Assembly: GCF_030068605.1 (NCBI RefSeq)
Contig: NZ_JASJOU010000015.1
Location: forward strand, 62,001 to 126,000
Source: Xanthocytophaga agilis
GTDB lineage: Bacteria; Bacteroidota; Bacteroidia; Cytophagales; 172606-1
DNA length: 64,000 nucleotides
Reading direction: 5' to 3'
The translations under genes and the position numbers were made by a program. This document shows, in pieces, positions 15,737 through 46,679 of this stretch; the first letter of the stretch is position 1; each line of letters begins with the position of its first letter. A model generated the notes under the pieces. That model was not told the DNA's origin, searched no databases, and worked only from the letters and a program-made list of their open reading frames with translations.

Positions 15737-15788
15737 CTTTCATAAAGAAAGACGTTGATTTACTGCAAACCTAAACTCTATTCAATAT

Positions 15789-16001: not shown

Positions 16002-16022
16002 AAATATTAATAAAATTGTACT

Positions 16023-16073: not shown

Positions 16074-16186
16074 TAGTTTTCTCTTGGAAAAATTTCTTAA
16101 CATAAAAGGCGTTATTTTTCGACCCTCTTTTTTGTCCTATCCTTTATAGAAATAAAGAATTAAAAAACTTCATTGTACTTTCTAAC

Positions 16187-17197
16187 ATGCTTACTGTCTC
16201 TAGATATTCTATAGTTCAAAATACTAAATCTTTTGTTTTTTTGGGAGATTGGATTGATGCTAAACAATTAGTGCCACTTCAACTATTCGATCATTATCAA
16301 TTAGTCAAAGCTTCAAAAGTTCAAATAGAGTACATCAAAAGACAGATTGACTATTTATTGTTAGCAAATGTACCTAATATATGGACAAACAAATTTGAAA
16401 TAGAAAGAGTCCCTACAAGCAATGGCGTCCTTTATCAGGGTGTTCCTGAAGCAAAGTGGAATTATTATGTGATTGAACACAAAAGAAGGCAAGCCGGAAA
16501 CTCTTTAAAACTTGCGCTTACGTTATCATCGCTTGATTTAACTGTTTTATTTGAAGTATACTTTGATCAAAATAATGACATTTCAACACGGCATATACCA
16601 AATTATTTAATGGATGGCCTTTCAACATTTAATTATACCTATGATACATCAAGCCCTTTTTATTTTTATCAACAAGGGCCTAAAATAATAGATAATAAAG
16701 GTATAGAAGAACTCAATTTTATTTATCAGAAATGTATAAATTTTAAACATAAACCAGCTTTTGATTTTATTCAAAAGGCATTAAAGGATTTCTTAGAAGT
16801 AAAAAGCATATCTGATAGCTCTGCATTTAAAATATTGTCATATTTCTCTATCCTAGAATTAGTTTTGACTACTAATCAGAATAGAACCCCAGGAGGAGTC
16901 TCCTTGACTCATCAACTTCAAAAAAAGATGTCTCTTCTTAATAATCGATTCTCCGAGCCAATTGATTTTCAAAAACATTTTAAAACACCAAATACAGTTA
17001 ACTGGGATAAACTCATAGAGAAACTCTATGACTATCGAAGTAGTATTGCTCATGGTACACAAGCTGACTTTAGTGACAAATTATCAATGCTTAAAGACAG
17101 ATATAAGGTGTTAGATTTTGTAAAAGAATTGTGTCGAAAGGTATTACTTCAAGCACTCATTGAACCCCAATTAATTACAGATTTAAAACAGTGCTAG
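16187..17197 (+). CDS. HEPN-domain (ApeA-like) protein, possible RNase
   Basis: A 336-residue AT-rich gene. The C-terminal third (about 190-330) is helical and holds FKILSYFSILELVLTTNQN and, near residues 284-289, RSSIAH, an Rx4H motif of HEPN ribonucleases. The arrangement (helix with ILELVL, then YDYRSSIAHG) is that of the ApeA/Apea-like HEPN families. The N-terminal part is not recognised. Such proteins often serve in phage defence or as toxins; here it stands alone without an evident antitoxin. It lies in accessory DNA beside a phage relic. Confidence 0.6.
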   Translation: MLTVSRYSIVQNTKSFVFLGDWIDAKQLVPLQLFDHYQLVKASKVQIEYIKRQIDYLLLANVPNIWTNKFEIERVPTSNGVLYQGVPEAKWNYYVIEHKRRQAGNSLKLALTLSSLDLTVLFEVYFDQNNDISTRHIPNYLMDGLSTFNYTYDTSSPFYFYQQGPKIIDNKGIEELNFIYQKCINFKHKPAFDFIQKALKDFLEVKSISDSSAFKILSYFSILELVLTTNQNRTPGGVSLTHQLQKKMSLLNNRFSEPIDFQKHFKTPNTVNWDKLIEKLYDYRSSIAHGTQADFSDKLSMLKDRYKVLDFVKELCRKVLLQALIEPQLITDLKQC

Positions 17198-19050: not shown

Positions 19051-20070
19051 ATGGATACTACACTCGAAAAAGAAAATTGTATGCAATTATTGCAGTCCGG
19101 GCAACTGGAAAATATTCAGCTTGGATTAGAAACCGCCCAATCGTTATCTCTTGATATAGGCGAGTTCATAACCGATATGGAAATCCTCTATAAATGGATG
19201 ACTACCGGCCAGGAACGAAAAGAGTCCACACTGGCAGAAAAGATTTTGCGGGTTTATTCCGGCTGGGAGTATGTGCATCCAAGAGAGGTACTGGATATGA
19301 GCAACACAAGCCCCTATGAAATTAAAGAAGTTCCTACACAGATCCGCTATCTGACACATCTGAGAGAATTTATTATCAATGGGCAATTCGTAAAAACGCT
19401 TCCCGATGAATTAGCACAATTAACTGGATTGCAGAAAGTTGATTTGTATTTCAATCCGCTTGGTCATTTTCCAAAGGCTATTGGCTCACTAACCCAATTG
19501 AAAGAATTGAGGCTGGGCATGACTAAGTTAAAAGAACTGCCAGATGAAATCTGGAATCTAACTCAGTTGGAAACACTGGATCTACATTCGAATCAGCTTA
19601 CAGAAATATCGCCACAGATTGAACGTTTAGTAAACCTGCAGGATCTGGACTTGAGAGGTAGTAAGTTAGATGAATTTCCAAATATTTGGAATCTGACAAA
19701 GCTTGAAACACTGGTTCTGTCACATTGCCAGTTACAGAAGATTCCTACCTTGATTGGAAACCTGGTTAAACTAAAGGTGCTTGATTTGGGTACCAATCAG
19801 ATTGACAACTGTCCGGCAGAGATAGGAAAATTAACTCAGCTGATAAGTTTGGCTCTTGATACCAATCAATTGACGCAAGTTCCTTTAGAGATAGTGCAGC
19901 TAAAAAAACTACAAACATTAGAGTTACAACGTAATCAACTTCAGCACCTGCCCGAACAAATACGGTTACTACCTGAGTTAAAGTATATATACCTAAAGGG
20001 AAACCCTATGTCTGAGCAAACCATAGCCCAGATCCGCGAGTGGCTACCTAACTGTAAGGTAGATTTCTAA
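19051..20070 (+). CDS. cytoplasmic leucine-rich repeat protein
   Basis: A 339-residue protein without signal peptide, unlike the LRR protein at 7410. The first 85 residues are helical; from about 90 to 330 it is a solenoid of 23-residue LRRs, for example LPDEIWNLTQLETLDLHSNQL, and ends in a capping motif NPMSEQTIAQIREWLPNCKVDF. The last motif (MSExxxxxIxxxLPNCxIxF) is frequent in intracellular Bacteroidota LRR proteins. Role inferred: protein-protein binding. Single gene. Confidence 0.85.
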   Translation: MDTTLEKENCMQLLQSGQLENIQLGLETAQSLSLDIGEFITDMEILYKWMTTGQERKESTLAEKILRVYSGWEYVHPREVLDMSNTSPYEIKEVPTQIRYLTHLREFIINGQFVKTLPDELAQLTGLQKVDLYFNPLGHFPKAIGSLTQLKELRLGMTKLKELPDEIWNLTQLETLDLHSNQLTEISPQIERLVNLQDLDLRGSKLDEFPNIWNLTKLETLVLSHCQLQKIPTLIGNLVKLKVLDLGTNQIDNCPAEIGKLTQLISLALDTNQLTQVPLEIVQLKKLQTLELQRNQLQHLPEQIRLLPELKYIYLKGNPMSEQTIAQIREWLPNCKVDF

Positions 20071-22760: not shown

Positions 22761-24962
22761 ATGCAAAGCCAGCTATTTTACATGAGAGCCATACAAATCA
22801 AACAACACGATCTTACAGATTGCGGAGCTGCCTGTCTGGCGTCCGTTGCAGCATACTACAAATTGCATTTACCCCTTGCCCGAATCCGTCAGTATGCAGG
22901 CACAGATAAGAAAGGAACCAACCTGTCAGGTCTGATGGAGGCTGCCACCAAGCTGGGTTTTCAGGCCAAAGGGGTAAAGGGCAGCTTTGAAAGTCTTACT
23001 CAGATACCACTTCCCTGTATTGCTCATGTTGTACTAAAACCAAACACCTCGGCAGAAAAAGAGCAGCTAGTTTCCCATCACTATGTAGTGATTTACCATG
23101 TAAGTAAAAACTACATCAGGGTAATGGACCCTATTGATGGAAGACTACATAGAAAATCACATGAAGACTTTAGAAAAGAGTGGACCGGAGTTCTTCTACT
23201 TTTATTACCTGACGAAGGAAGATTCAAGCAGGGCAATGAGAAGATTTCGTTCTTTCGACGGTTCTGGACTTTGCTTACTCCTCATAAAACTGTCATGCTC
23301 CAGGCACTAGCAGGGGCTATCACTTATACAGTCCTTGGGCTCTCCACCTCGGTTTACATTCAGAAAATAACAGATTCAGTGCTGGTGGAAGGCAATAAAA
23401 ACCTATTGAACCTGCTAAGTGTGGCAATGATTGTTATTCTGGCTTTTCAGCTTCTGATCAGTTGGTTCAAAAGTATGTTTATGCTCAAAACGGGTCAACA
23501 GATTGATGCCCGCCTGATCCTTGGTTACTACAAACATCTGATGAGGCTGCCCCAGACATTTTTTGATACCATGCAGGTAGGTGAAATCATTTCACGGGTC
23601 AATGATGCGGTGAAGATACGTGCCTTTATCAATGATGTTGCCTTGAATCTGGTAGTGAATCTGTTCATCGTATTTTTTTCCTTTGCACTAATGTTCACCT
23701 ATTACTGGAAGCTGGCTTTTATCCTGACGGCAATCATTCCCCTCTATGGGGTTGTCTATTTTATTGCAAACCAAATCAATAAACGGTTGCAGCGGCAATG
23801 GATGGAAAGTTCAGCCAATCTGGAAATTCAGCTGGTAGAGTCTTTGAATGCGGCAGCAACCATCAAACGATTCGGGCTGGAAGAGCATGCCAATCTGAAA
23901 ACAGAAATCCGTTTTGTTCAACTGCTCAGAAATGTTTTCCATTCCGGAAAAAATACATTATTTATTTCAACAGCCGGAGAGTTTCTGTCCCGTTTGTTTA
24001 CGATTATTCTGCTTTGGACAGGAAGTTACTTTGTGATCGATGGAGAGTTAACACCTGGAGAATTGCTATCATTTTATACCCTGGTTGGGTATTTTACCCT
24101 TCCAGCTACCAATTTACTTGCCGCCAACAAGTCTATCCAAGAGGCTGTAATAGCCACAGATCGGCTGTTTGAAATCATGGATCTGGAACGGGAGGAAAAT
24201 GAGAATAAGGTTGATCTGACACCAGAACTAATAGGAGATATACAATTTAAAAATGTTTCATTTCGGTATGGAACCCGTCAGAAGGTATTTGATAAACTTA
24301 GTTTTACCATTCCCAAAGGCAGTATTGTTGCAATTATTGGCGAGAGTGGTTCCGGCAAATCAACCCTTTTATCCTTACTCCAAAACCTGTATCCCCTCAG
24401 TGAAGGAAACATTACCCTTGGCCAGTATGATATCCGCTATGTTTCCACCAAAAGCTTGCGCCACATGGTAAGCGTTGTTCCTCAGCAGATTGATCTGTTT
24501 AGTACAAGCATACTGGAAAACATTGCTGTTGGAGATCATACACCCAATATGCAGAAAGTGCTCTCCCTTTCGGCACAGTTGGGGATAAGCGAATTCATTG
24601 AAAAACTCCCGGGCGGATTTAATGCACTCTTAGGAGAAAATGGCATAAATCTTTCCGGTGGGGAGCGTCAACGGCTGGCTATTGCGCGGGCATTGTATCG
24701 CAATCCGGAAATTTTAATTCTGGATGAAGCCACTTCTTCGCTCGATAGTATCTCAGAGCAATATGTCCAAACTACTATTGAGAATTTACGTAAAGAGGGT
24801 AAAACTGTTTTAATCATTGCGCACAGACTTTCCACTATCAAAAATGCAGATAAGATCATTGCACTGGAAAATGGACAGGTAATGGCAGAAGGTACCCATG
24901 AACAGCTACTTGAACAGGATACTATCTATAGCAAATTATGGCGAGTACAATTTGGCATGTAA
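22761..24962 (+). CDS. peptidase-containing ABC exporter (LanT-like, C39)
   Basis: A 733-residue three-part exporter. Residues about 8-140 are a C39 peptidase: HDLTDCGAACLASV with catalytic Cys21, SHHYVVIYHV with the catalytic His near 104, and MDP with the Asp near 124. Six membrane helices fill about 170-450. The ATPase has GESGSGKST (near 527), LSGGERQ (near 631) and LILDEA (near 652). The family cuts leaders after Gly-Gly and exports the core peptide. The precursor at 31023..31187 has exactly such a site. The start may instead be the ATG at 22782, giving MRAIQIKQHD. The HlyD-like adaptor follows after 86 bases. Confidence 0.95.
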   Translation: MQSQLFYMRAIQIKQHDLTDCGAACLASVAAYYKLHLPLARIRQYAGTDKKGTNLSGLMEAATKLGFQAKGVKGSFESLTQIPLPCIAHVVLKPNTSAEKEQLVSHHYVVIYHVSKNYIRVMDPIDGRLHRKSHEDFRKEWTGVLLLLLPDEGRFKQGNEKISFFRRFWTLLTPHKTVMLQALAGAITYTVLGLSTSVYIQKITDSVLVEGNKNLLNLLSVAMIVILAFQLLISWFKSMFMLKTGQQIDARLILGYYKHLMRLPQTFFDTMQVGEIISRVNDAVKIRAFINDVALNLVVNLFIVFFSFALMFTYYWKLAFILTAIIPLYGVVYFIANQINKRLQRQWMESSANLEIQLVESLNAAATIKRFGLEEHANLKTEIRFVQLLRNVFHSGKNTLFISTAGEFLSRLFTIILLWTGSYFVIDGELTPGELLSFYTLVGYFTLPATNLLAANKSIQEAVIATDRLFEIMDLEREENENKVDLTPELIGDIQFKNVSFRYGTRQKVFDKLSFTIPKGSIVAIIGESGSGKSTLLSLLQNLYPLSEGNITLGQYDIRYVSTKSLRHMVSVVPQQIDLFSTSILENIAVGDHTPNMQKVLSLSAQLGISEFIEKLPGGFNALLGENGINLSGGERQRLAIARALYRNPEILILDEATSSLDSISEQYVQTTIENLRKEGKTVLIIAHRLSTIKNADKIIALENGQVMAEGTHEQLLEQDTIYSKLWRVQFGM

Positions 24963-25048: not shown

Positions 25049-26215
25049 ATGAGTGAGCTTAGATTAGTCCCCACAGAAATTATTACCAACACAACAGAAG
25101 CGTATTTGCCTACTGTTTCTGTGAAAAGCCAGATCATTTATCTATCTGTGTTAACCCTGATTCTGCTTTCCATTATAGTACTCCCTTTTGTCAAGGTCGA
25201 TGTTTCTGTAAAGAGTGCAGGTACCATCCGGACAGCAGCAGAGAAGAATGAACTCAAAGCAATAGTCTCTGGAATTGTAGCCGAGGTTTATGTAAAAGAA
25301 AATCAGTCTGTAAAACAAGGACAGGTATTGTTTAGCCTTACCAGTAAAATTGCCGATAGTAAGCTAGCACTGAGCAAGTCCAGCCTTTTAGAAAAAAAAC
25401 AGTTTATAACCGATCTGAAGCATCTTATCAGTACCCCTCGCACACAATTACTACAACGGATAAAAACACTCTCTCCTGTTTATACCCAGCAATACAACCA
25501 GTTCAGATTACAAACCCTTGAAAAGCAGCATATTCTCTCCAAAACCAGAAAAGAACTGGAACGCCACCAGTTACTTTATACCCAAAAAGTGATAGCTCAG
25601 GTTGAACTCGAAGAGAAACAATTTGTCTATACCCAAGCCCTCAATGAGTATAATACGCTCATTGAGACGCAACTTTCACTCTGGCAGGGACAACTTAATG
25701 CTTATCAGCTGGAAATAGATGCATTAGAGGCGCAGAGACAGCAACTCTTTGCTGAAAAAGAATTATATACCATCAAATCACCAATTGCAGGCACAGTACA
25801 GCAGCTAAGTGGTAAATATGTTGGCAGTTTTATTGAGGAGGGGGAAATGCTGGGAATTATCTCGCCGGATTCCAACCTGATCGCAGAGTGTTATCTTCCT
25901 CCTGAAGATATTGGACTCGTGAAAGAAGGGATGAAAGTCAATCTTCAAATAGATGCCTTTAATTACAATGACTGGGGACTGATTTCGGGGAAGATCATTG
26001 ACATTGGGAATGACTTTACCCTGATCAACAACAAACCTGTTTTTAAAGTGAAGTGCAAATTGGATAAGCAAACACTTTCTCTCAAAAACGGATATATGGC
26101 GTATTTAAAGAAAGGAATGACACTACATGCCCGTTTTGTGGTTACCCAACGCAGTTTATTTCAATTATTGTATGATACAACTGATGATTGGTTAAATCCA
26201 CTTATTATAAAGTGA
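25049..26215 (+). CDS. HlyD-family membrane fusion protein
   Basis: A 388-residue periplasmic adaptor. One membrane helix lies at about 27-48 (IIYLSVLTLILLSIIVLPFV). A lipoyl-like half (ELKAIVSGIVAEVYVKENQSVKQGQVLFSL) is followed by a long coiled coil (about 110-235), the second lipoyl half (IKSPIAGTVQQLSGKYVGSFIEEGE) and a beta-barrel part. It bridges the exporter to an outer-membrane channel, which is not encoded nearby. It lies between the exporter and the dehydratase in one plus-strand unit. Confidence 0.9.
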   Translation: MSELRLVPTEIITNTTEAYLPTVSVKSQIIYLSVLTLILLSIIVLPFVKVDVSVKSAGTIRTAAEKNELKAIVSGIVAEVYVKENQSVKQGQVLFSLTSKIADSKLALSKSSLLEKKQFITDLKHLISTPRTQLLQRIKTLSPVYTQQYNQFRLQTLEKQHILSKTRKELERHQLLYTQKVIAQVELEEKQFVYTQALNEYNTLIETQLSLWQGQLNAYQLEIDALEAQRQQLFAEKELYTIKSPIAGTVQQLSGKYVGSFIEEGEMLGIISPDSNLIAECYLPPEDIGLVKEGMKVNLQIDAFNYNDWGLISGKIIDIGNDFTLINNKPVFKVKCKLDKQTLSLKNGYMAYLKKGMTLHARFVVTQRSLFQLLYDTTDDWLNPLIIK

Positions 26216-26244: not shown

Positions 26245-29200
26245 ATGGATTTAGTTTCTTCAGATTTCTTTGTTCTTAGAACCCCCATCTTTCCTTATAA
26301 GCTACTTGATAAATTAAAGCTAAATGACATAAGACAGGATTCACGTTTTCTTGATGCACTTTATAGTGCTTCTTCAAAGCTTCCACTTGAAGAACTTAAT
26401 AATGGCAAACTTGATGAGAAGAAGAAAAGAAGATTGATTATAACAATAGGTAAATATTTACTACGGGCTCATACTCGTTCTACCCCTTTTGGACTATTTG
26501 CTACTATATCTTTAGGCCATATCGGTGATTCTACTTCATTAAAGTTGCAAGGAATTAATTCTGTTCAAACCAAAACCCGATTAGATAGTGAATTTATTAC
26601 CTATTTATCAGAAGATTTACTAAAAGAGCCTACTGTCAGACAGCAAATACGTTATTGGTTAAATTCTTCTGTTGTGAAAGTTTCGTCAGTCTATCAGTAT
26701 ATAGAATACCGCATAGAAAATGGCATTAAAAGGTTTTTTCTTTCAGAAATTGAAGCAATAGAAGCATTAGACTACATTGTAACTATTCTTAACCAACAAC
26801 CTGGATTCCACTATAGAGATTTGTTAAAAAAGATATGCAAACAATTAAATACCTCAACACAGGAGGAGGAAGCTTCTGAATTTATTGATAGCTTAATTGC
26901 AAGTAAATTCTTACTATCTGAACTGGAATTATTTCCTTTTCCAGTACAAGGCCAAGATAAGGCGGAACAACTAGTCCAAATTTTAAAAACAGAAAATAAT
27001 CGGTGGAGCCCAATCTTAGAAAATCTTTTAGAGGTGGCCAATCGGGCAGATCAGAATCGCATAGGGGATAAAAGAAAATTCTATTTTGAAATAAACAAGC
27101 AAATAGAAAAGGCAGAATTACTTACAGTAAAGACAATAAATGATTTTTACCAGGTTGATAGCTTTCGACCTTTAAAAGGTCATCTTACAAGCAAAATCGC
27201 TCAAGAATTAAAGGATACTATTGAGTTTCTTTCTTATCTACCCAGACCTGTAAATAAGCAGTTTGAGAAATTTAAAGAAGTTTTTGCAAACTTGTATGAG
27301 GAGGCAGAGGTACCGTTGCTTCAAGTGTTGAACACAGAAACAGGATTGGGATATCCAATCAACTCACATCAAATCGAAAGCTCATTTATTGAAGGGTTGT
27401 TTGAAACAGACAATGATAGAAGAACAGATTGGCATTCATGGAACAATCATCTTTTAAACTTATATACCAAAGCTATTCAGAAAGGACAACTTGAAATAAA
27501 CCTTACTAATAAAGATATTGAGTCGATTGAGAAACAAAAAAATATTGCTGCTTCCTTATTTTCGGTAATAACAATTCTTGCAAGTACCCAAGAAGACATA
27601 GACAGTGGCAACTATCAACTCTTACATCACCTAACAACAGGTCCATCCTCTAGTCGTTGGCTTGGTCGATTTTGCCATCTTGATGAAAATCTTACTATAC
27701 TTCTTAGGGAAGCACTTGAAAAGGAACAAGAATTCTATCCAGATTGTGTGTTAGCCGAAATTGCCCATATTTCACAACCACGTAGTGGAAATGTCATTTA
27801 TCGTCCCCCTTTACGTCCATATTATATACCATTACTTTCTCCTTCATTAGAATGTGACTCGGAACCCATCACGTTGGATGATATTTATATAAGCTGTATT
27901 GCAAATGAATTAATTCTACGAAGCAAACGATTAAACAAAAGAATCCTTCCACGATTAAGTTCCGCTCATGATGCACAAAAATACTCTCTCCCATTATATA
28001 AATTACTTGTAGATATTCAAGATCAGGAAATGGGAACACTTAGTTTTACATGGGGTCCTATGGCAAAAGACCAACCTTTTCTTCCTAGAGTAACTTTTGG
28101 AAAGACTATTCTCTCCCCATCTATATGGCAATTAACCAATGACCAACAGATACATTTAAGTACGTTAGAGGAAAACAGTTTTATAGAAGAATTTACTAAA
28201 ATAAGTTGGGAACTTAACCTTCCTGAAATAGTACTTATTGGTGAAGGAGATAACAGACTCCCCATTAGCATTGCCAGCATTGCTAAGGATGCTGTTACCA
28301 GAGCAATTTTGATGCAGTGGATTCAAACAACGAAAGACAGAATTTTACTAGAAGACTTGTCAATAAATTCTAAATGGGTTTCTTCACCAGAAGGGAAACA
28401 TTCCCATGAGATAATCATTCCATTTTATAATAGGGCTCCAGAACCTAAACGGCTTCTCAAACTTGACATGAATGCAGTCATATCTCAAAAACGTCGTTTT
28501 GGTTTCGGATCGGAATGGATATATTTTAAAATATATGCAGGAATACAGGCAACAGAGAAGATATTACTTAATGTATTACCCAAATGGATCCAATCTATTG
28601 AGCAAAGAGGATTGATACAGAAATGGTTTTTTGTTAGATATCAGGATGATAAGGGACACCATCTCAGGATCCGCTTTTTTGGAACCGACAACTTTTATTT
28701 AACAGTAAGTCAGGAATTACATACTCTTCTTAATCCTTTCCTAGAAAGCAATCAAATTCAGAACATTGTAATAGATACTTATCAGCGTGAAATTGAAAGG
28801 TATGGTGCAGAGCTGATCGAAGTCACAGAAACTTTGTTTTATTATGATAGTAGAACAGTAATGAATCTACTTGGTAACATTGATGAGGATTCCAAAGAAA
28901 ATAGCCGAATCTTAATTGCATTTTTGCTTGTGGATAGCTTCATGAGTGCGTTTGGGTTAAGCCTTCTAGAAAAGTATCAGATGATGAATTGGCAACAATC
29001 TACATTGAAGAAAATATTTAAAATTCACAAGTCCACTCAACTCAAAAAACTTAGTGATAAATACCAAAAGTCTAAATCTCTTCTCTTTTTTCTAGAAAAG
29101 CCAATAAATAGTGAGTCAAATGATATAAGTCAGATTCGAAAAATTATAGATATACATTGGTCAAAGTGTATAAATGTAATAACAATACTTAGTAAGGACA

Positions 29201-29355
29201 ATGACCAAGCTGCTCCGATCAAAAGCAGGTTAGCCGCATATTTACATATGAGCCTTAATAGATTATTCACCACTAATTCGAATCATCATGAATTAGTAAT
29301 TTATTATTGCCTATGCAAACACTATGAGTCAAAAATTAAGCAAATCAAGAACTAA
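26245..29355 (+). CDS. class I lanthipeptide dehydratase (LanB-like), full length
   Basis: The start at 26245 gives MDLVSSDFFVLRTPIFPY, the usual LanB beginning; a longer frame from 26188 would overlap the HlyD gene. The 1036-residue protein has the Lant_dehydr_N glutamylation domain (about 1-660; RAHTRSTPFGLFA is its diagnostic motif near 71-83) and the SpaB_C/thiopeptide-type elimination domain (about 770-1030; WIYFKIYAGIQATEKIL and KGHHLRIRFFG). It glutamylates Ser/Thr of the precursor with Glu-tRNA and eliminates glutamate to give dehydro residues. It is more AT-rich than the exporter. It converges with the S41 protease gene, with 7 bases between stops. No LanC follows. Confidence 0.95.
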   Translation: MDLVSSDFFVLRTPIFPYKLLDKLKLNDIRQDSRFLDALYSASSKLPLEELNNGKLDEKKKRRLIITIGKYLLRAHTRSTPFGLFATISLGHIGDSTSLKLQGINSVQTKTRLDSEFITYLSEDLLKEPTVRQQIRYWLNSSVVKVSSVYQYIEYRIENGIKRFFLSEIEAIEALDYIVTILNQQPGFHYRDLLKKICKQLNTSTQEEEASEFIDSLIASKFLLSELELFPFPVQGQDKAEQLVQILKTENNRWSPILENLLEVANRADQNRIGDKRKFYFEINKQIEKAELLTVKTINDFYQVDSFRPLKGHLTSKIAQELKDTIEFLSYLPRPVNKQFEKFKEVFANLYEEAEVPLLQVLNTETGLGYPINSHQIESSFIEGLFETDNDRRTDWHSWNNHLLNLYTKAIQKGQLEINLTNKDIESIEKQKNIAASLFSVITILASTQEDIDSGNYQLLHHLTTGPSSSRWLGRFCHLDENLTILLREALEKEQEFYPDCVLAEIAHISQPRSGNVIYRPPLRPYYIPLLSPSLECDSEPITLDDIYISCIANELILRSKRLNKRILPRLSSAHDAQKYSLPLYKLLVDIQDQEMGTLSFTWGPMAKDQPFLPRVTFGKTILSPSIWQLTNDQQIHLSTLEENSFIEEFTKISWELNLPEIVLIGEGDNRLPISIASIAKDAVTRAILMQWIQTTKDRILLEDLSINSKWVSSPEGKHSHEIIIPFYNRAPEPKRLLKLDMNAVISQKRRFGFGSEWIYFKIYAGIQATEKILLNVLPKWIQSIEQRGLIQKWFFVRYQDDKGHHLRIRFFGTDNFYLTVSQELHTLLNPFLESNQIQNIVIDTYQREIERYGAELIEVTETLFYYDSRTVMNLLGNIDEDSKENSRILIAFLLVDSFMSAFGLSLLEKYQMMNWQQSTLKKIFKIHKSTQLKKLSDKYQKSKSLLFFLEKPINSESNDISQIRKIIDIHWSKCINVITILSKDNDQAAPIKSRLAAYLHMSLNRLFTTNSNHHELVIYYCLCKHYESKIKQIKN

Positions 29356-29362
29356 AGGTTGG

Positions 29363-30781
29363 CTATCTTAGAGTGCCTGCTTTTTTTATGATATACTGAA
29401 TCCAGTCCTGCGTTTGCTCAGGAATCTTAAGAAAGGGAATGATCTTTACAGGATCAAGAGTAGAATCTACATTCTTATAATTGCCATTCCGGGTAATTGG
29501 ATACATAATCTGATAGATAGGACAGGGTAAATTAACTGATACCGCATCTAAATTATCAATAGCACCAGCAGAAGGTTGCCCACAGGTGATTACTTTACTA
29601 CTCTGTTGCGCCAGTTCAGCAAACATCTCTGCTGCACTAGCTGTTCCTTTGTCAATTAAGACAAAAACCCGTTGAGGGAATCGACTTTTTGGAATAGCAG
29701 CAATACTATCTGTTTGCCAGTAAAGCTGATCGGGATGAGATTTCATATCAGAAATTAGCTTTGTAACCAGATTGATCTCATAGGGTGTTACATCTGGGTA
29801 TGTTTTCAGTATATCTATAATTTTTGAATATGCGTTAACATTAGTTAAAGTAGCAAGAGTGCCCGCGCCTTTCATTACTACTTCACCATCTGAAACCAGA
29901 GTAAGAAGCTTTGGAAAAGTGGCGATCCCACCACCTCCATTTTGTCGCAAATCGATAATTAAATTCTTCACTGAAAACAATTGATTTTTATATCGAGAGA
30001 AGACAGAATCAATTGGTTCAACCAAGCCAAACGAGTTAATATCTAACAAATTCCAGTCAGCAGAAAGAGACTTAAATGAAATAATAGGTTCTTCTTTAAA
30101 AGGCTTTTCTTGATCGGATTGCTTTTGCCAGTTAAATGAAATCTCGGAACCTTGAAGGCTCACAAGTTGATTTTGAGCAAAATGATATTTGATTTTTCTG
30201 GGTAAATGGTCTCTCGAATACAATATACCTTCATAGATTGAAGGGCTTCTGCGAGTAAGCTTCACTTTGATCTGTCCAGGTTTCCAGAAGGCTGTGTCAG
30301 CAAAAAGTATCAAACCAATAAAGGAATCTTTAGACCCTTTTTCCCGAGATATAGATATCTGATAAGCCCCAGAAGTATTATTCCATTTGCCTTCAATCGG
30401 GTCATTCCTTGTACTCTCATTTTTTTCAGATATTTCAATACTCTGATTTGGTGCAAAATTTAGAACCTGAGAAGCATTTTTGCGATTCAACGAAATAAGA
30501 AAATGTCCATCTTTAAAAAAAGACACCCATGAATCCAAAAGGTTTAAACATGCGAATGGATTAGTGATATTCTTGCTAGTTCTTTGCAGACTGTCCTGAA
30601 AGGAAATAAATAGATTTTTGTTGCCAGAATGTATTTTATATTTAAACCCAATATAATTTGTTTTAGTATGTTCAATGAGCGCATTTAATGTTGATTCACA
30701 AGAACATGAGCTTTGGGCTTTGCCTTCCCAATTGCTTAATAACAATATTATAAGAATAACAGAAAAGTGTAATCGAATCAT
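29363..30781 (-). CDS. S41 (C-terminal processing type) protease, exported
   Basis: The start at 30781 (MIRLHFSVILIILLLSNWEGKAQ) puts a signal peptide first; a longer frame starts at 30814. 472 residues. The catalytic core holds LRQNGGGG (near 283) and GTASAAEMFAELAQQ with the nucleophile Ser near 380, then CGQPSAGAIDNLD. A PDZ domain is not obvious. It lies between the convergent LanB gene and the precursor on the same strand as the precursor, with the 58-base palindrome between. Possible roles are processing or degradation of the exported peptide, or immunity; none is proven. Confidence 0.85.
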   Translation of the reverse strand: MIRLHFSVILIILLLSNWEGKAQSSCSCESTLNALIEHTKTNYIGFKYKIHSGNKNLFISFQDSLQRTSKNITNPFACLNLLDSWVSFFKDGHFLISLNRKNASQVLNFAPNQSIEISEKNESTRNDPIEGKWNNTSGAYQISISREKGSKDSFIGLILFADTAFWKPGQIKVKLTRRSPSIYEGILYSRDHLPRKIKYHFAQNQLVSLQGSEISFNWQKQSDQEKPFKEEPIISFKSLSADWNLLDINSFGLVEPIDSVFSRYKNQLFSVKNLIIDLRQNGGGGIATFPKLLTLVSDGEVVMKGAGTLATLTNVNAYSKIIDILKTYPDVTPYEINLVTKLISDMKSHPDQLYWQTDSIAAIPKSRFPQRVFVLIDKGTASAAEMFAELAQQSSKVITCGQPSAGAIDNLDAVSVNLPCPIYQIMYPITRNGNYKNVDSTLDPVKIIPFLKIPEQTQDWIQYIIKKAGTLR

Positions 30782-30906: not shown

Positions 30907-30964
30907 TTCTCTAAAACAGGAAGTGGTACAAAATATATTTTGTACCACTTCCTGTTTTAGAGAA
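30907..30964. terminator. 58-base perfect palindrome between precursor and S41 gene
   Basis: The 29-base arms are exact reverse complements with no loop bases: the left arm begins ttctctaaaacaggaagtgg and the centre reads aaatatattt. It lies 58 bases downstream of the precursor stop on its strand. A terminator or an attenuator that lets the precursor be made in excess over the protease is the simplest reading. On the plus strand the right arm is followed by tctttctattttt, so it may work in both directions. Confidence 0.65.
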
Positions 30965-31022: not shown

Positions 31023-31187
31023 TCAAATACTAATACCAGTTGTACAGGCAGTGATTGTCGTTCCACAATTACGACCACCAGAACCTCCGTTTATTTGTTT
31101 AGTTTCCAGTTCAGTTAACGGTGTCAGGCTACTCAATGTCTTCTTTTTAAGATTGAAGTGGGTTGAAGGATTTTTTTTGCTTTTCAT
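31023..31187 (-). CDS. RiPP precursor peptide, class I lanthipeptide-like
   Basis: A 54-residue frame found by reading the gap: ATG at 31187 (complement cat at 31185-31187), stop at 31023. The leader (1-35) has FNLKKKTLSSL at 11-21, close to the FNLD-box that LanB enzymes bind, then an acidic stretch and the double-glycine end QINGG. The core after GG is SGGRNCGTTITACTTGISI: two Cys, and seven Ser/Thr that LanB could dehydrate. The gene is divergent from the histidine kinase gene and upstream of the S41 gene. It is too short for routine gene finders. The match in leader, cleavage site, enzyme and exporter is strong; the product structure is inference. Confidence 0.88.
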   Translation of the reverse strand: MKSKKNPSTHFNLKKKTLSSLTPLTELETKQINGGSGGRNCGTTITACTTGISI

Positions 31188-31282: not shown

Positions 31283-32368
31283 ATGAATGTAGAAAAAATA
31301 TTGAATTACAAAATAACACTACCTCTGATACTCTGGTTGGTATATGTTTTTTGTGGTGCGTTAAATTTGTATATAGTCAGTCGGGCCGACAAAATCGTAT
31401 TCTTAGATCCGCTAATCTATTTCATCTATCTTTCAGGTGTATTTTATATAGCCGCCTGTGTGATCTATCCGATTTGGCAAACAAAATATAGTAGAATTAT
31501 AAAAATAGTATTCATACTATTTTCTGAAATAGGAGTACTTCTATTGTTAACACTTATGGATTTTATACTCGATTATGTTCTACCAATCCATAACTCTGAA
31601 ATTCCTCCTCCAGAATGGAAATTATCCTGGATTTTTAACTTCATAATAACTGGACATGTCTGGCATACAATTCAATATTCCATCTTTGGTTTTTTATATG
31701 CATATGCAAAATTCATCAATAAAAATAGAACAGAGCAACTTATAAAAACAGAGCGGGAAAAATATGTATTGGAAACATCCTTTCTGCGTTCTCAATTCCA
31801 TCCTCACTTCGTATTCAATGTGATCAATAGCATGTATAATCTGGCAAGAAAAAAAACAGACACACTACCAGTAGTCATTCAAAAATTTGCAGATTTGATG
31901 CGACATTCCTATGAATACAGAGAAGCTACAATCCCAATAGAGCAGGAGATTCAACATATAACAAACTATCTTTCTATTGTCCAGTTTCAATATAATCATA
32001 CCCTTCAATATGATATCTCATTCGCAGGAGACAAACAACTCAAAGTTATTCCTTCCGTTCTGATAACCTATGTGGAAAATGCGGTAAAACACGGATACCT
32101 GTTAGATCAAAATAACCCTTTAACTGTTGCTATTACTGCGGAAAGTAATCGCTTACAGATCAGTATTTCTAATCCGGTCAAATCCAGTCCAATCACTTCT
32201 ACAGTTGAAAAAGTTTCTACAGGTATTGGCCTAAAAAATGCGCAAAGACGTTTAGAAATCCACTATGGTAACAGACAAACGCTAAAAACAACCAATCAGA
32301 ACAATTACTATAAGGTAGATATTCATATCAATAATCCAGCACTGATAGATTCACTTATCCAGGATTAG
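31283..32368 (+). CDS. LytS/YehU-type histidine kinase
   Basis: A 361-residue kinase. Four membrane helices fill about 10-150. The His_kinase box FLRSQFHPHFVFNVINSMYNL carries the phospho-accepting His near 172. The ATPase part has ITYVENAVKHGYL (N-box, near 262) and TGIGLKNAQRRLEIHYG. It lacks a periplasmic sensor domain, so it likely senses in the membrane, as in peptide quorum sensing or antibiotic stress. It is divergent from the RiPP precursor and followed by a response regulator gene, so it probably controls the RiPP locus. Confidence 0.9.
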   Translation: MNVEKILNYKITLPLILWLVYVFCGALNLYIVSRADKIVFLDPLIYFIYLSGVFYIAACVIYPIWQTKYSRIIKIVFILFSEIGVLLLLTLMDFILDYVLPIHNSEIPPPEWKLSWIFNFIITGHVWHTIQYSIFGFLYAYAKFINKNRTEQLIKTEREKYVLETSFLRSQFHPHFVFNVINSMYNLARKKTDTLPVVIQKFADLMRHSYEYREATIPIEQEIQHITNYLSIVQFQYNHTLQYDISFAGDKQLKVIPSVLITYVENAVKHGYLLDQNNPLTVAITAESNRLQISISNPVKSSPITSTVEKVSTGIGLKNAQRRLEIHYGNRQTLKTTNQNNYYKVDIHINNPALIDSLIQD

Positions 32369-32513: not shown

Positions 32514-33155
32514 ATGCAACCCTCAAGGCAAAAAATCAAATGTGTTATAGTAGATGATACTCCCATTCAGTTGGAAATCTTAACAGAAGACCTTCAAAAG
32601 ATACCCCAGATTGAAATCCTTTTAGCCACTACAGATCCTGTAGAAGCCTATAGCTTCTTGATGGATAATCAGGTAGATGTTGCCTTTTTAGATATACATA
32701 TGCCAGTGCTGACAGGAATGGATATTATTGAACAATTTGGCAACACCATTAACTTTATTGTCATCACTGCCTATGATGATTATGGGCTGAAAACTCATAA
32801 GTATCATGGTTCTATCGATTTTTTGTTAAAGCCTGTGAGCATGGACAGTTTACTGAATGCTGTAACAAAACTGTCCAAACGGCTTGAGGAGCAAAACGCC
32901 TTAAAAAATGCAACAAGACCCTGGGATCATAAACTAGAGGAAACGTATAAGAATTTTAGAAGTCTGTATAGCTTAACAGATCGGGAAGAACAGATCACCA
33001 AACTTTTAACAGACGGATTATCGAACAAACAGATTGCAGATAAAATTTTTCTGGCAGAAAGCACAGTGGCTAAACACATTCAGAATATTTACAAGAAATC
33101 CTCTGTCAAATCCAAGTTCGAATTGATCCACAAAATCAGTCAGTTAAACTCCTGA
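32514..33155 (+). CDS. response regulator with receiver and LuxR-type HTH
   Basis: A 213-residue regulator. The receiver has VDDT at 12-15 and the phosphorylated Asp in FLDIHMP near residue 59, with a Lys in LLKPVS near 106. The C-terminus (about 148-210) is a LuxR/GerE HTH: LTDREEQITKLLTDGLSNKQIADKIFLAESTVAKHIQNIYKK read in parts. Most LytS-type kinases pair with LytTR regulators; here the output is LuxR-type. The gap to the kinase gene is 145 bases. Regulated target inferred: the RiPP genes. Confidence 0.92.
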   Translation: MQPSRQKIKCVIVDDTPIQLEILTEDLQKIPQIEILLATTDPVEAYSFLMDNQVDVAFLDIHMPVLTGMDIIEQFGNTINFIVITAYDDYGLKTHKYHGSIDFLLKPVSMDSLLNAVTKLSKRLEEQNALKNATRPWDHKLEETYKNFRSLYSLTDREEQITKLLTDGLSNKQIADKIFLAESTVAKHIQNIYKKSSVKSKFELIHKISQLNS

Positions 33156-34339: not shown

Positions 34340-34837
34340 ATGATAACAAGACGCTATCTGGAAAAAGAGTCTACTGTTCTGGGTCTTCCCATGCTGCAGG
34401 TAGGCATGCTGATTATGCTCACTGTGGTGCTGATCATCTTTTCGACCTTTCTGAAATTGATGGCACCTGGCTTTAAGTGGTTCAATCATGCGACTGTGAT
34501 CATTGTTACATCTGCTTATTTTGGACTCAAGTATGCTTCCCGTCAGAAGCATCCGAGCTTTATTACTTCGTATCTGAGCTATCGCTTTCAGCAAAAGTCC
34601 AAACGGTTTTCTCCAACAGCGGACTCGGTGTTAAATGCAGAGTCCATACTGCTGGCTTTTCATCGCAATCAGGCACTTCTGAAAAAAGACACAAGCAACT
34701 GGACACAGGGTAACTCTTTGCAAAGAAAAACGATAAGAAAAGAAGCTGACAATCCAGCGAAGAATGAAACCAAGTGGACAGATGCTGCCAGAGACTATTC
34801 CGATAGGGAAGTAAGTCTGAATGAATACGGGCAATGA
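34340..34837 (+). CDS. traF: TraF-like VirB3-type T4SS protein
   Basis: A 165-residue protein. Two adjacent hydrophobic helices lie at about 20-65 (MLIMLTVVLIIFSTFLKLMA and WFNHATVIIVTSAYFGLKYA), as in VirB3 and Bacteroidota TraF (DUF4133). The C-terminal half is a polar Lys/Gln-rich tail longer than usual. It sits between the VirB2-like and VirB4-like genes. Confidence 0.65.
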   Translation: MITRRYLEKESTVLGLPMLQVGMLIMLTVVLIIFSTFLKLMAPGFKWFNHATVIIVTSAYFGLKYASRQKHPSFITSYLSYRFQQKSKRFSPTADSVLNAESILLAFHRNQALLKKDTSNWTQGNSLQRKTIRKEADNPAKNETKWTDAARDYSDREVSLNEYGQ

Positions 34838-34864
34838 CCACTCTCAAAGTGGTCATTGCTTTTT
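34831..34864 (+). terminator. terminator-like hairpin between traF and traG
   Basis: A perfect 12-base stem (gcaatgaccact with agtggtcattgc), loop ctcaa, followed by five T. It lies across the traF stop and before the ATG of the VirB4 gene at 34927. It may attenuate transcription into the ATPase gene. Confidence 0.75.
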
Positions 34865-34926
34865 GGGGAGGTCAGTATTTTTCCTTTCCTATCAATCCCT
34901 TACACCATCTAACTACTACCATTTCT

Positions 34927-37560
34927 ATGTTTTCCCCAAAAGAAAAACCATTGGATGATGCCCTTCCCATCTTTGAAATCGAGGATGGAATCATTGTCTA
35001 TAAAGACGGACGGGTAGCAGTCGGCTTTGAACTTGACGTGCTGGAAATGGAAAAGTTTCCTGCTTCGCGCTATGAGCATCTGTCTGATGTGTTCACAGGA
35101 GCAATCAAGATTCTGCCCGCCGGTTGCTCGGTCCAGAAGCTGGACTACTATTACTTTGAGCCCTTCCAGGCTGCGACAGCCGATAAAGGCTTTTTTGAGA
35201 AAAACATGATCCATCACTTTTACAACCGGCAGTCTCTTTCTCACAAATCATATCTGTTTGTCTCACTCGGAGAGCCGTCCCAGCCTCCTTCCAATCCGGT
35301 CAATACCCTGTTTGCCTTTGGCAAAGCGTTTCTGAACAGCTCTCCTTTCAAAGGGATTGAGGAAAGAATGCTGGTGTTAAACCGGGTAGGTCGTGAATTT
35401 GCCTCCAGCCTCGCCCTAGAAGGGATCAGAATCAAGCTGCTTTCCAATGAGGATCTTAAATGTGTCTGCCGGATGTATTTTAACCTCGAATTCAGCCCCG
35501 TACCTCAGAGCCTGGAAAGACCGTTAAAGGTAGCAGAAAATTACTGTGTACTCGGGGAGAAAAAGGTAAATGTGATCTCGCTGCAAAACCAGCCGGGACA
35601 GATCTTCCCTTCGGTGTATAATTACACGGGAGTCGCTTCACCTTTTGTTTATCCGCTGACACATTACCTGCAACTGCCCCATATTCTTTCTGTTACAATC
35701 ACGGTCAGCGATACGGACAAAACGCTTAAAAAGCTCGACGATGAAAACAAGCGCAACCGTTTTTTAGACTTTCTTACCACACAGGACAATATCAAAAAAA
35801 CGGAAGAGATTACCGACTTTACCCATGAGATCCGGACTTATAACAAAAACACAGTCGAAACATCTGTTTGTGTGATTGTCTGGGAAACAGACGATACCAT
35901 CCGGGGTGAATACTGTCAGGGGGTGGCGAAGGCTTTTCAGATGATGGGAGGTGCTACAGCCCTGATTGAAACGGTTGATTCGGCAAATCTGTATGTTTCC
36001 AGCTCTCCGGGAAACAGCTACCATAATTACCGCAAGCTCCTGATGAGTGGAGACAATGCTTCGATGTATATGAATCTGATCACTAACTACAATCATCTGA
36101 CCAAAGGAGATGAAATCCTGTGTGACAGGTTCCGCAATCCGCTCCGGGTAAAGCTGTTCAATACCGATCTGAACAATCAGAACCAGCTCACCATCGGTCC
36201 CTCCGGATCAGGTAAGTCCTATACGATGGGAAATCTGATCACGCAACGTTTTGAGCTCGGGCACAGCCAGATTATCATTGATGTAGGAGGAACGTATCTT
36301 TCGCTGATTTCTGCCCTGGATGGAAAATACTTTGAGTATGACCCGGAGGCTCCACTAAACCTGAATCCCTTCATTGTTGACCGGGTCAGAGCTGATCAGC
36401 TGGAAGATAAATCGCATCAGGGATATGAGCCCTATAAGCTTTCCGGAGATAAAATTAACTATCTGACAGCGCTTTTATCAGTCATCTGGAAAGGGTCAAA
36501 AGGGGATATCTCCCAGGCGGAACGGGCTATTTTCACCAAACTACTGCCCCTGTATTATGGGCATTACAATCAGGAGCTGCTGGAAAACCCGGCCAAAGAA
36601 GCTCCAAGCATCAAAGGGTTTTACCATTGGGTGGAAACCTTTGAACGGGAAGGGTCAGCTGACTATCTGCGGCTGAAGAATTCGTTTGACTTTAATGAAT
36701 TTCTGGTGGTATTAGAGCCTTATGCCATTGGCAACTATGCCGATGTGTTAAACTCTTCTTCGCACGCAGATGTATCCGATCACCGGCTGATCTGTTTTGA
36801 TATGGCCAAGATCAAAAAGAATCCGATGCTCTACCATGTGATTGCCCTTTTGATCACAGAGCTCGCCCTGGATGTAATCCGCAAGTATCCCGAGCAAAGA
36901 AAGTATTTCTACATGGATGAAGCCTGGTCAATGCTTTCAGACGGCATGGGGAATTTTGTCGAATCGATGTACCGCACAGTGAGGAAAAACAACGGGTCGA
37001 TGTGTATCATCACCCAGGGGATTTCAGAGATTGTTAGTTCCAAAATCGGCCCGGCTATTTTGCAGAATGCAGCTACCTATGTGATTCTCAATCACAGTGA
37101 TCAGACTGAAATCACCAAACTGGCCTCTCACCTGGGCCTGACCTCGCATGAAGTCGAGCTGATCCGTTCGATTCGGAAAAACGATGCAGAAGGCTGGCGG
37201 GAGCTGTTTATCAAACAGGGGGATTTTGCCAAAATCTATCTGATGGAAGTCTCTGTTAAGATCGACGCCATCCTGACCTCCAAGCCCGAAGAAAGGGATT
37301 ATTTGCGAAGACTTCAAAAGCAGTTCAAGGGCAACATTCATTATGCGATCAATGAATATGTAGCCTGGAAAAAGGCTGGAAAACCCACTCCAAAAAAGCA
37401 GGAAATGAGGGAAAAACACGTAAATGAGCTGAATGTTGCTACACCACTAACTACTATACCATCAACTGCTGCAATATCAACGGCTACAATATCAACGGCT
37501 ACAACAACTATGACAGAATCAAACCCACTTACAGGCAAAAGTAAAGAAGAAATCCGATGA
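34927..37560 (+). CDS. traG: TraG-family VirB4-type conjugation ATPase
   Basis: The start is set at 34927 (MFSPKEKPLDDALPIFEIEDG), which matches the usual TraG start; a longer frame from 34834 would begin inside the hairpin. 877 residues. Walker A GPSGSGKS is near 424, Walker B FYMDEAW near 661, with a conserved DRFRNP and LINL-like region between. It powers pilus assembly and substrate transport at the inner membrane. A Thr/Ile-rich tail (TTIPSTAAISTATISTATTT) is a simple-sequence addition. Confidence 0.95.
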   Translation: MFSPKEKPLDDALPIFEIEDGIIVYKDGRVAVGFELDVLEMEKFPASRYEHLSDVFTGAIKILPAGCSVQKLDYYYFEPFQAATADKGFFEKNMIHHFYNRQSLSHKSYLFVSLGEPSQPPSNPVNTLFAFGKAFLNSSPFKGIEERMLVLNRVGREFASSLALEGIRIKLLSNEDLKCVCRMYFNLEFSPVPQSLERPLKVAENYCVLGEKKVNVISLQNQPGQIFPSVYNYTGVASPFVYPLTHYLQLPHILSVTITVSDTDKTLKKLDDENKRNRFLDFLTTQDNIKKTEEITDFTHEIRTYNKNTVETSVCVIVWETDDTIRGEYCQGVAKAFQMMGGATALIETVDSANLYVSSSPGNSYHNYRKLLMSGDNASMYMNLITNYNHLTKGDEILCDRFRNPLRVKLFNTDLNNQNQLTIGPSGSGKSYTMGNLITQRFELGHSQIIIDVGGTYLSLISALDGKYFEYDPEAPLNLNPFIVDRVRADQLEDKSHQGYEPYKLSGDKINYLTALLSVIWKGSKGDISQAERAIFTKLLPLYYGHYNQELLENPAKEAPSIKGFYHWVETFEREGSADYLRLKNSFDFNEFLVVLEPYAIGNYADVLNSSSHADVSDHRLICFDMAKIKKNPMLYHVIALLITELALDVIRKYPEQRKYFYMDEAWSMLSDGMGNFVESMYRTVRKNNGSMCIITQGISEIVSSKIGPAILQNAATYVILNHSDQTEITKLASHLGLTSHEVELIRSIRKNDAEGWRELFIKQGDFAKIYLMEVSVKIDAILTSKPEERDYLRRLQKQFKGNIHYAINEYVAWKKAGKPTPKKQEMREKHVNELNVATPLTTIPSTAAISTATISTATTTMTESNPLTGKSKEEIR

Positions 37561-45909: not shown

Positions 45910-46679
45910 ATGTCAACATTCATTTCTTACTAGCGGGTCTCAACGCAGAAACAGGGCCGCTCCGGTTTAGGGCTTGATGCCCAAAGAGCGGATGTGGAAA
46001 GATACATTGCTGGTAAGGGCGAGCTAATCGCTGAGTTTACCGAAATCGAAAGTGGCCGAAAGAATAACCGTCAACAGCTTCACAATGCCATTGAGAAAGC
46101 CAGAAAAACGGGATCAACCCTGATTGTTGCCAAGTTAGATCGTCTCAGTCAGGATGCTGCCTTTACCATTCAGCTCTCCAATAGTTCGGTAAACTTTGTT
46201 TGTGTCGATAATCCCCATATCAATAAAATGACCATTGGTATTTTAGCGCTCGTCAATCAGGAAGAAGCCGAAAGGATCAGTTTACGGACAAAAGCCGCCT
46301 TAAGGGAAAAGAAGAAAAAAATTGAAATGGGAATTTATACTAATTCACACACAGATCCACTCACTGGAGAACGAAGGTAATGAAGCCTGATAAAAATGGG
46401 AACTATCGACTCGGTAGTCCTCAGGGATTTACTGCTGATATTACCCAGGCAGGAATGATGGCAGCTAAAGAAAAAGCACATGCAAATGAAAATACCAAAC
46501 GTACCAAGCATGTCATTCGGGACACACTCAAAGAGAACCCTGATGCTTCATTAACCTTTTTGGCAGAGCGCTTAAATACGTATGGAATACCTACCAGTAG
46601 AGGAAAACGCTTTAACAAGTTCAATGTAGCCTATTTTAGAAAGCTTGTCAAAGAAGAGATGAGTGTAAAAAACGAATGA
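45910..46679 (+). pseudogene. serine recombinase/resolvase, broken by a nonsense codon and a frame break
   Basis: An ATG at 45910 opens a frame reading MSTFISY, then a TAG at 45931, then RVSTQKQGRSGLGLDAQRADV in the same frame. This is the resolvase active-site region (YxRVSTxxQ with the catalytic Ser); a Tyr codon before R has become TAG. The catalytic domain goes on to 46380 (KLDRLSQDA, EEAERISLRTKAAL). The next frame starts at 46380 with one base shared and continues the C-terminal part (RLGSPQGFTADITQAGMMAAK, NTYGIPTSRGKRF). Both breaks make it a probable pseudogene. Confidence 0.75.

What the first reader, a model, noticed from the sequence alone, without database searches (positions are those of the whole stretch)
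31023..31187. Unannotated RiPP precursor gene in the gap between the S41 protease and the histidine kinase
Seen: a 54-codon minus-strand frame with FNLKKKTLSSL, an acidic leader, QINGG and a core SGGRNCGTTITACTTGISI. Known: class I lanthipeptide leaders bind LanB through an FNLD-like box, and C39 exporters cut after Gly-Gly. Inference: this is the substrate of the LanB-type enzyme at 26245 and of the C39 exporter at 22761. The core has two Cys and seven Ser/Thr, so up to two thioether rings are possible. It is likely to be missed by gene callers because of its size.
Basis: partly seen in the sequence, partly recalled or inferred. Interest (0 to 1): 0.92.

Follow-up and report, generated by a model that had tools for sequence, protein, structure and literature searches.

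The report
Lanthipeptide precursor gene, cyclase missing nearby
A very small gene most likely encodes the raw peptide of a modified bacterial peptide product, in a cluster beside mobile-element genes that has the dehydrating enzyme, exporter, a companion protease and a sensor but not the usual ring-forming enzyme.

Summary
The 54-codon frame at 31187-31023(-) is there and is very probably the substrate of the LanB. Its leader has the Bacteroidota class I box (FxLxKx5L; published LxLxKx5L), not FNLD, and ends in Gly-Gly; it is basic, not acidic. The core has 2 Cys and 7 Ser/Thr. Best evidence: in genome G006 (L059) the same gene set has a GG-leader precursor in the same slot and strand, which passes NCBIfam's class I lanthipeptide leader model (36.6 bits, cut-off 22). 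Against it: the window's peptide fails that model (11.6), and a leader HMM alone does not beat chance; a composite motif and rank tests do. The weak step is rings: LanC is absent from the window's contig, and the genome's two LanC genes sit beside its other two LanBs. S41 peptidases lie within 10 kb of LanB in 11 of 52 loci examined, and beside a GG-peptide in L138, a stretch without LanB. Both LanC-less clusters abut conjugative tra genes. Most likely: a LanB-dehydrated peptide, cut after Gly-Gly and exported by C39/HlyD, under two-component control. Ring closure and the S41 role (self-protection or trimming) remain open.

The parts
31023..31187 (-). LanA-type precursor peptide, 54 aa; leader 1-35 (FxLxKx5L box at residues 11-21, Gly-Gly 34-35), core 36-54 SGGRNCGTTITACTTGISI
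   Evidence: NF038153 11.6 bits, below cut-off 22
30907..30964 (.). 58-bp perfect palindrome (29-bp arms, no spacer) between precursor and S41; strong hairpin in a transcript, possible stability or attenuation element (inferred)
   Evidence: z -10.5; no other copy in the genome with up to 3 mismatches in a 23-base arm; L059 has a different strong hairpin in the same gap (z -7.8)
29363..30781 (-). S41-family peptidase, 472 aa from the ATG at 30781 (frame open to a TTG at 30814); N-terminus looks like a signal peptide by eye, not tested
   Evidence: PF03572 5e-15; TASAAEM and DGH motifs, His and Ser invariant in a 13-row alignment
26245..29355 (+). Full-length LanB dehydratase (N-terminal and C-terminal dehydratase domains)
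   Evidence: PF04738 5.5e-123 and PF14028 5e-58; matches four solved LanB-type sequences incl. NisB
25049..26215 (+). HlyD-type membrane-fusion partner of the exporter
   Evidence: PF13437 6.8e-20
22761..24962 (+). C39 peptidase-containing ABC exporter
   Evidence: PF03412, PF00664, PF00005; C39 domain aligns with 4ry2 through the DCGAACL, H(F/Y)VVIY and DP stretches
31283..32368 (+). Sensor histidine kinase, divergent from the precursor (95 bp between start codons)
   Evidence: PF06580 1.3e-18
32514..33155 (+). Response regulator with LuxR-type output domain
   Evidence: PF00072, PF00196
33747..44635 (+). Conjugative tra genes that the cluster abuts (TraG-like ATPase at 34834-37560)
   Evidence: PF19044 4e-69; several of these genes match a run in L122. 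The other four ORFs of the stretch given to one search had no Pfam hit

Best explanation
The frame encodes a LanA-type precursor of the Bacteroidota class I kind. LanB binds the FxLxKx5L leader and dehydrates Ser/Thr of the 19-residue core (inferred from family and synteny). The C39 domain of the exporter cuts after INGG, and the core leaves through the C39 ABC exporter, HlyD and an outer-membrane channel encoded elsewhere (inferred). The divergent HK/RR pair controls the cluster, probably sensing the product (inferred). The precursor and the S41 protease point the same way with a strong hairpin between them, so the peptide could be made in excess over the protease; S41 most likely protects the producer by cutting the peptide, or else trims it (inferred). 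Whether Cys closes rings is open, because no LanC lies in the cluster (shown).
For: Exact frame. Syntenic cluster in G006/L059 with a precursor in the same slot and strand, that precursor at 36.6 bits to NF038153. Composite motif: 1 match in the window, 1 in 300 shuffled windows, 24 matches in 16 of 36 LanB loci, 0 in 15 loci without LanB. Candidate ranks first of 124 window ORFs of 40-120 aa against the L059 precursor (47, next 40) and on the mean score to 20 other leaders (31.5, next 23.1); 8 of 2000 shuffles of it reach its score to L059. GC 37.7% against 24.0% and 20.0% in the gaps on either side. Domains of LanB, C39, HlyD, S41, HK, RR. L153 has HK, RR, LanA, S41, LanC, LanB, C39, HlyD in order, its LanA at 55.2 bits to NF038153. 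PMC7268733 section 6 (read): LxLxKx5L leaders ending in GG, C39 often in the cluster, in Bacteroidetes class I.
Against: NF038153 score below cut-off. Leader HMM not above chance. Codon usage inconclusive: 7th of 100 ORFs, and one antisense frame of the same DNA scores higher. No convincing homologue among 390 order genomes (best other hit E 0.0086, with stops inside). BLASTP to the L059 precursor only E 0.019, and it pairs the candidate's leader Gly-Gly with a Gly-Gly inside the L059 core. Leader has 3 extra residues between box and Gly-Gly. The L059 and L153 precursors also pass the cut-off of TIGR04149, a leader family of rSAM-modified RiPPs (27.0 and 30.2 bits, cut-off 25), though with lower scores than for NF038153. 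No expression data.
Confidence: 0.86

Rival explanations
1. Canonical lanthipeptide with LanC supplied in trans: one of the two LanC enzymes on contigs C8 or C11 closes up to two rings (for example core S1-C6 and T9-C13).
For: The genome holds two LanC genes; G006 also has LanC matches on other contigs; the window's core has two Cys, the L059 core one.
Against: Both LanC genes lie beside their own LanBs; 38 of 52 LanB loci have LanC within 10 kb, so its absence here is not the norm.
Confidence: 0.45
2. LanB-only product: Ser/Thr dehydrated, Cys free, disulfide-bonded or cyclised without an enzyme.
For: Both clusters of this gene set lack LanC (window, L059). G049 has two LanBs and no PF05147 match anywhere, so LanB can occur without LanC.
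Against: Precursor candidates at LanC-less loci mostly have Cys-free cores: both in L073 and two of three NHLP-leader ones in L127; this core keeps two Cys, which suggests that they are used.
Confidence: 0.4
3. The peptide is mainly a signal: GG-peptide, S41 and HK/RR form a sensing module that can occur with or without LanB.
For: L138 has GG-peptide, S41, HK and RR in a row next to a C39/HlyD locus with no LanB in the 20-kb stretch.
Against: Of 44 S41 rows scanned (43 genes), only the window, L059 and L138 have a GG-leader peptide within 700 bp upstream, judged by eye. The L138 peptide fits neither leader model above its cut-off. Two-component control is common in lanthipeptide clusters (recalled).
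Confidence: 0.25
4. Chance frame: an AT-rich gap that happens to hold a precursor-like ORF.
For: Leader HMM and codon usage alone do not separate it from chance.
Against: Synteny with L059, composite motif and rank tests.
Confidence: 0.04
5. The cluster is decaying cargo: the divergent leader and absent LanC mark a cluster that no longer makes a product.
For: Sub-threshold leader; in G003 a partial S41 beside transposase genes lies just upstream of a related tra operon.
Against: All seven cluster frames are open here and the conserved stretches of LanB, C39 and S41 are kept.
Confidence: 0.1

Closest known systems
Bacteroidota class I lanthipeptide precursors with LxLxKx5L-GG leaders (NCBIfam NF038153 lant_leader_L1a; PMC7268733)
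   Same: Box, Gly-Gly end, Cys/Ser/Thr core, LanB and C39 in the cluster
   Different: First box residue is Phe; three extra leader residues; below the NF038153 cut-off; no LanC in the cluster. PMC7268733 looked within seven genes of LanC-like genes (section 6), so a cluster like this lies outside its net
L059 cluster in genome G006 (same family, other genus)
   Same: Same seven genes, S41 and precursor on the opposite strand, no LanC in the stretch, beside tra genes
   Different: Block order LanB-C39-HlyD instead of C39-HlyD-LanB; core with one Cys; RR with LytTR instead of LuxR-type output; proteins 27-35% identical
SaNSR nisin-resistance protein (S41 peptidase, PDB 4y68; PMC4828448, passages only)
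   Same: S41 family, a TAS(S/A)AEM serine motif, a conserved His
   Different: 472 aa here against 320 aa; TASAAEM, not TASSAEM; located in a producer cluster; other S41 structures score better in the profile search; export from the cytoplasm judged by eye only
Pinensins
   Same: Class I lanthipeptides of the phylum, by 2020 the only ones isolated from it (PMC7268733 passage)
   Different: Pinensin has a split LanB (PMC7268733 section 8); this LanB is full length

Membership tests
Class I lanthipeptide (Bacteroidota LxLxKx5L-GG kind) | LanB dehydratase encoded in the cluster | tested here: met
   PF04738 and PF14028
Class I lanthipeptide (Bacteroidota LxLxKx5L-GG kind) | LanC cyclase encoded in the cluster | tested here: not met
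   Genome-wide PF05147 search: matches only on contigs C8 and C11, window is on C15
Class I lanthipeptide (Bacteroidota LxLxKx5L-GG kind) | Leader box LxLxKx5L | tested here: inconclusive
   FxLxKx5L at residues 11-21: all but the first position fits, Phe for Leu (motif from PMC7268733)
Class I lanthipeptide (Bacteroidota LxLxKx5L-GG kind) | Gly-Gly leader end with C39 peptidase in the cluster | tested here: met
   INGG at residues 32-35; PF03412 6.7e-33
Class I lanthipeptide (Bacteroidota LxLxKx5L-GG kind) | NF038153 leader model above cut-off | tested here: not met
   11.6 bits against 22; the L059 counterpart reaches 36.6
Class I lanthipeptide (Bacteroidota LxLxKx5L-GG kind) | Core with Cys and Ser/Thr | tested here: met
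   2 Cys, 7 Ser/Thr
Class I lanthipeptide (Bacteroidota LxLxKx5L-GG kind) | Lanthionine or methyllanthionine in the product | not testable with these tools
   needs mass spectrometry
NHLP/proteusin precursor | NHLP leader (TIGR03793) | tested here: not met
   not among the hits at E up to 1
rSAM-modified GG RiPP (TIGR04149) | TIGR04149 leader match | tested here: not met
   not among the candidate's hits at E up to 1; but the L059 and L153 precursors pass its cut-off (27.0 and 30.2 bits, cut-off 25)
rSAM-modified GG RiPP (TIGR04149) | Radical SAM enzyme in the cluster | tested here: not met
   17 PF04055 matches in the genome, none on the window's contig C15
NSR-type lantibiotic-degrading S41 protease | TASSAEM motif and catalytic His-Ser dyad | tested here: inconclusive
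   TASAAEM; H93 and S382 invariant in a 13-row alignment, not mapped onto SaNSR His98
NSR-type lantibiotic-degrading S41 protease | Degrades the lanthipeptide | not testable with these tools
   needs an enzyme assay

The most novel reading that the evidence does not exclude
A mobile, LanC-free form of class I biosynthesis: LanB makes a short dehydrated Cys-containing peptide whose rings form without a dedicated cyclase, and the co-directional S41 protease with the adjacent HK/RR forms a peptide-sensing and self-protection module that has moved between LanB clusters and loci of unmodified GG-peptides (as in L138).
Probability: 0.25. Interest if true: 0.65.

Novelty: new variant of a known kind. 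Interest (0 to 1): 0.45.

Why it matters
The large survey that I read in part (PMC7268733) found lanthipeptide clusters by starting from LanC. Clusters such as this one, with LanB, a Cys-bearing precursor and no LanC, fall outside that net, and this leader also falls below the curated model. If the product is real, it tests whether class I rings need a clustered cyclase at all. The recurrent S41 neighbour also gives a concrete candidate for self-protection or trimming in Bacteroidota lanthipeptide clusters.

Tried and rejected
Leader HMM from 20 other precursors as a stand-alone proof: failed. Codon-usage proof: inconclusive. Bacteroidota-type promoter (consensus recalled) upstream: a TTG-N19-TATTTTTA site scores 8 of 9, but 200 of 500 shuffles reach that, so no claim. 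Homologues of the peptide: no match in the plasmid collection; in 390 order genomes 8 other genomes with weak matches, E 0.009 to 0.095, not convincing. S41 in viral contigs: none confirmed. S41 structure from a two-row alignment: mean pLDDT 34, unusable, so no fold search was made. Palindrome as a repeat family: no other copy found. LanB tree: the window's LanB falls in a starred 14-row set with L059 and LanC-bearing loci, but its branch is long and its place unsure. Precursor for the C11 LanB (L062): none recognised.

Limits of the surveys. The motif scan has no core-length limit and gives at least one false match (L059 7377-7742, the DUF4133 gene), so its LanA count (24 of 52 loci) is approximate. 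The 52 loci include close copies (L040/L077, L061/L062, L066/L067/L072). Of the 14 without LanC within 10 kb, L044 is a 4.8-kb contig, L071 has LanC just outside the stretch, and the genomes of L070, L073 and L127 have LanC elsewhere. The S41 calls in L046, L047 and L068 rest on my HMM, not on Pfam.

Papers: PMC7268733 passages and sections 6 and 8; PMC10352776 passages; PMC4828448 passages; all others only as search listings. Searches listed no paper whose title or abstract start ties S41 peptidases to Bacteroidota lanthipeptide clusters; I did not open the listed papers apart from those named, and supplements could not be read, so this is weak.

Full report
Observation. The minus-strand frame 31187-31023 reads MKSKKNPSTHFNLKKKTLSSLTPLTELETKQINGG | SGGRNCGTTITACTTGISI. 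The box is FxLxKx5L at residues 11-21. PMC7268733 (section 6, read) reports that a number of Bacteroidetes class I precursors have LxLxKx5L instead of FxLD, that many of these end in Gly-Gly, and that a C39 peptidase is often in the cluster. The better match is thus the Bacteroidota box, with Phe for the first Leu.

Chance. Taken alone, the leader does not prove the gene. NF038153 gives 11.6 bits against a cut-off of 22. An HMM from 20 other LanB-linked leaders gives 5.9 bits, second in the window behind a 7.2-bit hit in another frame; the best hits of 60 shuffled windows have a median of 6.5. Part of the reason is a three-residue insertion between box and Gly-Gly. Codon usage is inconclusive: 7th of 100 ORFs of 40-75 aa, 25 of 1000 base shuffles reach it, and one antisense frame scores higher. 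Tests on the whole anatomy do better. A composite motif matches the window once, at this frame, and once in 300 shuffled windows; it gives 24 matches in 16 of 36 LanB loci and none in 15 loci without LanB. The motif was written after seeing the candidate. The candidate ranks first of 124 window ORFs of 40-120 aa both against the L059 precursor and on the mean score to the 20 other leaders; 8 of 2000 shuffles reach its score to L059. GC is 37.7% against 24.0% and 20.0% in the gaps on either side.

Synteny. The strongest support is L059 (genome G006, same family, other genus). LanB, C39 and HlyD lie on one strand, S41 (15181-16620) and a 58-aa GG-leader peptide (16755-16931) on the other, then HK and RR. 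The peptide has the slot and strand of the window's. It scores 36.6 bits to NF038153; it also passes TIGR04149, a leader family of rSAM-modified RiPPs, with 27.0 bits against 25. No radical SAM gene lies on the window's contig (17 PF04055 matches in the genome, none on C15). The direct similarity of the two peptides is weak: BLASTP E 0.019 over GGSxxxNCG, with Gly-Gly at the leader end in one and within the core in the other. The shared proteins are only 27-35% identical, so the common layout is not a recent copy.

Enzymes. LanB is full length (PF04738 5.5e-123, PF14028 5e-58) and matches four solved LanB-type sequences, among them NisB. The exporter has C39, membrane and ATPase domains; its C39 domain aligns with 4ry2 through the Cys and His stretches (that these hold the catalytic residues is recalled). 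HlyD, HK (PF06580) and a LuxR-type RR are clear. L059 has the same kind of HK but an RR with LytTR output.

The missing cyclase. A PF05147 search of the whole genome finds LanC only on contigs C8 and C11, where the other two LanBs lie; the window is on C15. Over 52 LanB loci, 38 have LanC within 10 kb. Among the 14 without it, some are artefacts of short stretches or have LanC a little further off (L044, L071). G049, however, has two LanBs and no LanC match in the genome. Precursor candidates at LanC-less loci look different: both in L073 and two of three NHLP-leader ones in L127 have Cys-free cores, the third has one Cys. The window and L059 lack LanC in the cluster but keep Cys. Rings could come from LanC in trans, form without an enzyme, or not form. 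This is the open step and the reason not to file the peptide as a proven lanthipeptide.

The S41 protease. By my HMM, S41 genes lie within 10 kb of LanB in 11 of 52 loci: the window, L059, L046, L047, L060, L068, L153, L156, L158, L159 and L163. Eight S41 proteins were checked by Pfam, seven from this list plus one of L138, and all eight are PF03572; the window's is; L046, L047 and L068 were not checked. In L153 the order is HK, RR, LanA, S41, LanC, LanB, C39, HlyD, with LanA and S41 consecutive on one strand, and that LanA scores 55.2 bits to NF038153. In L060 LanA and S41 are divergent neighbours. L138 (G721) has a GG-leader peptide, S41, HK and RR in a row beside a C39/HlyD locus, no LanB in the stretch; the genome has a LanB on another contig. 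Most members of this S41 family have no such peptide: of 44 rows (43 genes, one row a cut copy) only the window, L059 and L138 do, judged by eye. The window/L059 S41 profile matches 52 of 390 order genomes at E up to 1e-30 and 30 of 395 class genomes at E up to 1e-35, with at most four candidates scored per genome. Of these I looked at 24 stretches besides the two (15, 9) and saw no LanB in them; in the class sample no other S41 hit lies next to a LanB hit. The other order-sample hits were not all checked. The profile of the 13-row alignment matches, among other S41 structures, the nisin-resistance protein SaNSR (4y68, E 5e-11), but retinol-binding protein 3 and three others score better. SaNSR is an S41 peptidase that removes the last six residues of nisin with a Ser236 (TASSAEM)/His98 dyad (PMC4828448, passages); the window has TASAAEM and an invariant His. 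This makes self-protection the first guess for S41 and trimming the second. Neither is shown, and the signal peptide was judged by eye.

Hairpin. A 58-bp perfect palindrome at 30907-30964 separates precursor and S41. As RNA it folds far better than shuffles (z -10.5); L059 has a different strong hairpin in the same gap (z -7.8). No other copy was found in the genome. A stabilising or attenuating role would give more precursor than protease; this is inference.

Mobility. The RR ends about 590 bp before tra genes with a TraG-like ATPase (PF19044). In L059 the LanB end abuts DUF4134, DUF4133 and TraG genes, with TraJ- and TraM-type genes beyond. In G003 a related tra operon has a partial S41 and transposase genes just upstream. 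The cluster therefore looks like cargo of conjugative elements; its ends were not mapped.

Verdict. The frame is very probably a LanA-type precursor, a new variant of a known kind: a Bacteroidota LanB/GG-leader precursor in a LanC-less, S41-bearing cluster beside conjugation genes.

Noticed in passing
L138:9932-13451: GG-leader peptide, S41, HK and RR in a row, with a second S41 in tandem, next to a C39/HlyD locus with class IIb bacteriocin-type peptides (TIGR03949); no LanB in the stretch
   Followed up: partly
L127:3209-4310 and L073:2930-3472: LanB loci without LanC in the stretch; three L127 precursors have NHLP leaders above cut-off, and four of the five candidate cores are Cys-free: LanB-only dehydrated peptides may exist
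   Followed up: partly
genome G049 (loci L074, L124): Two full-length LanB genes and no LanC match in the whole genome, given as 99% complete
   Followed up: no
window 30907-30964: 58-bp perfect palindrome with no spacer, no other copy found in the genome
   Followed up: partly
L122:8418-10563: Partial S41 beside transposase genes (PF00665, PF01527) just upstream of a tra operon related to the window's; possible decayed cargo
   Followed up: partly
window 12758-13891, 45994-46380, 56652-57161: Phage-integrase-family gene left of the cluster and two short resolvase-type genes right of the tra genes
   Followed up: no
window 47879-56432: TonB-dependent receptor, an HmuY-family protein (50341-51078), further ORFs, then a second S41 peptidase with a PDZ domain (54885-56432), a distant relative of the cluster's S41
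   Followed up: no
window 7410-9080 and 19051-20070: Two leucine-rich-repeat proteins, one on each side of the integrase
   Followed up: no
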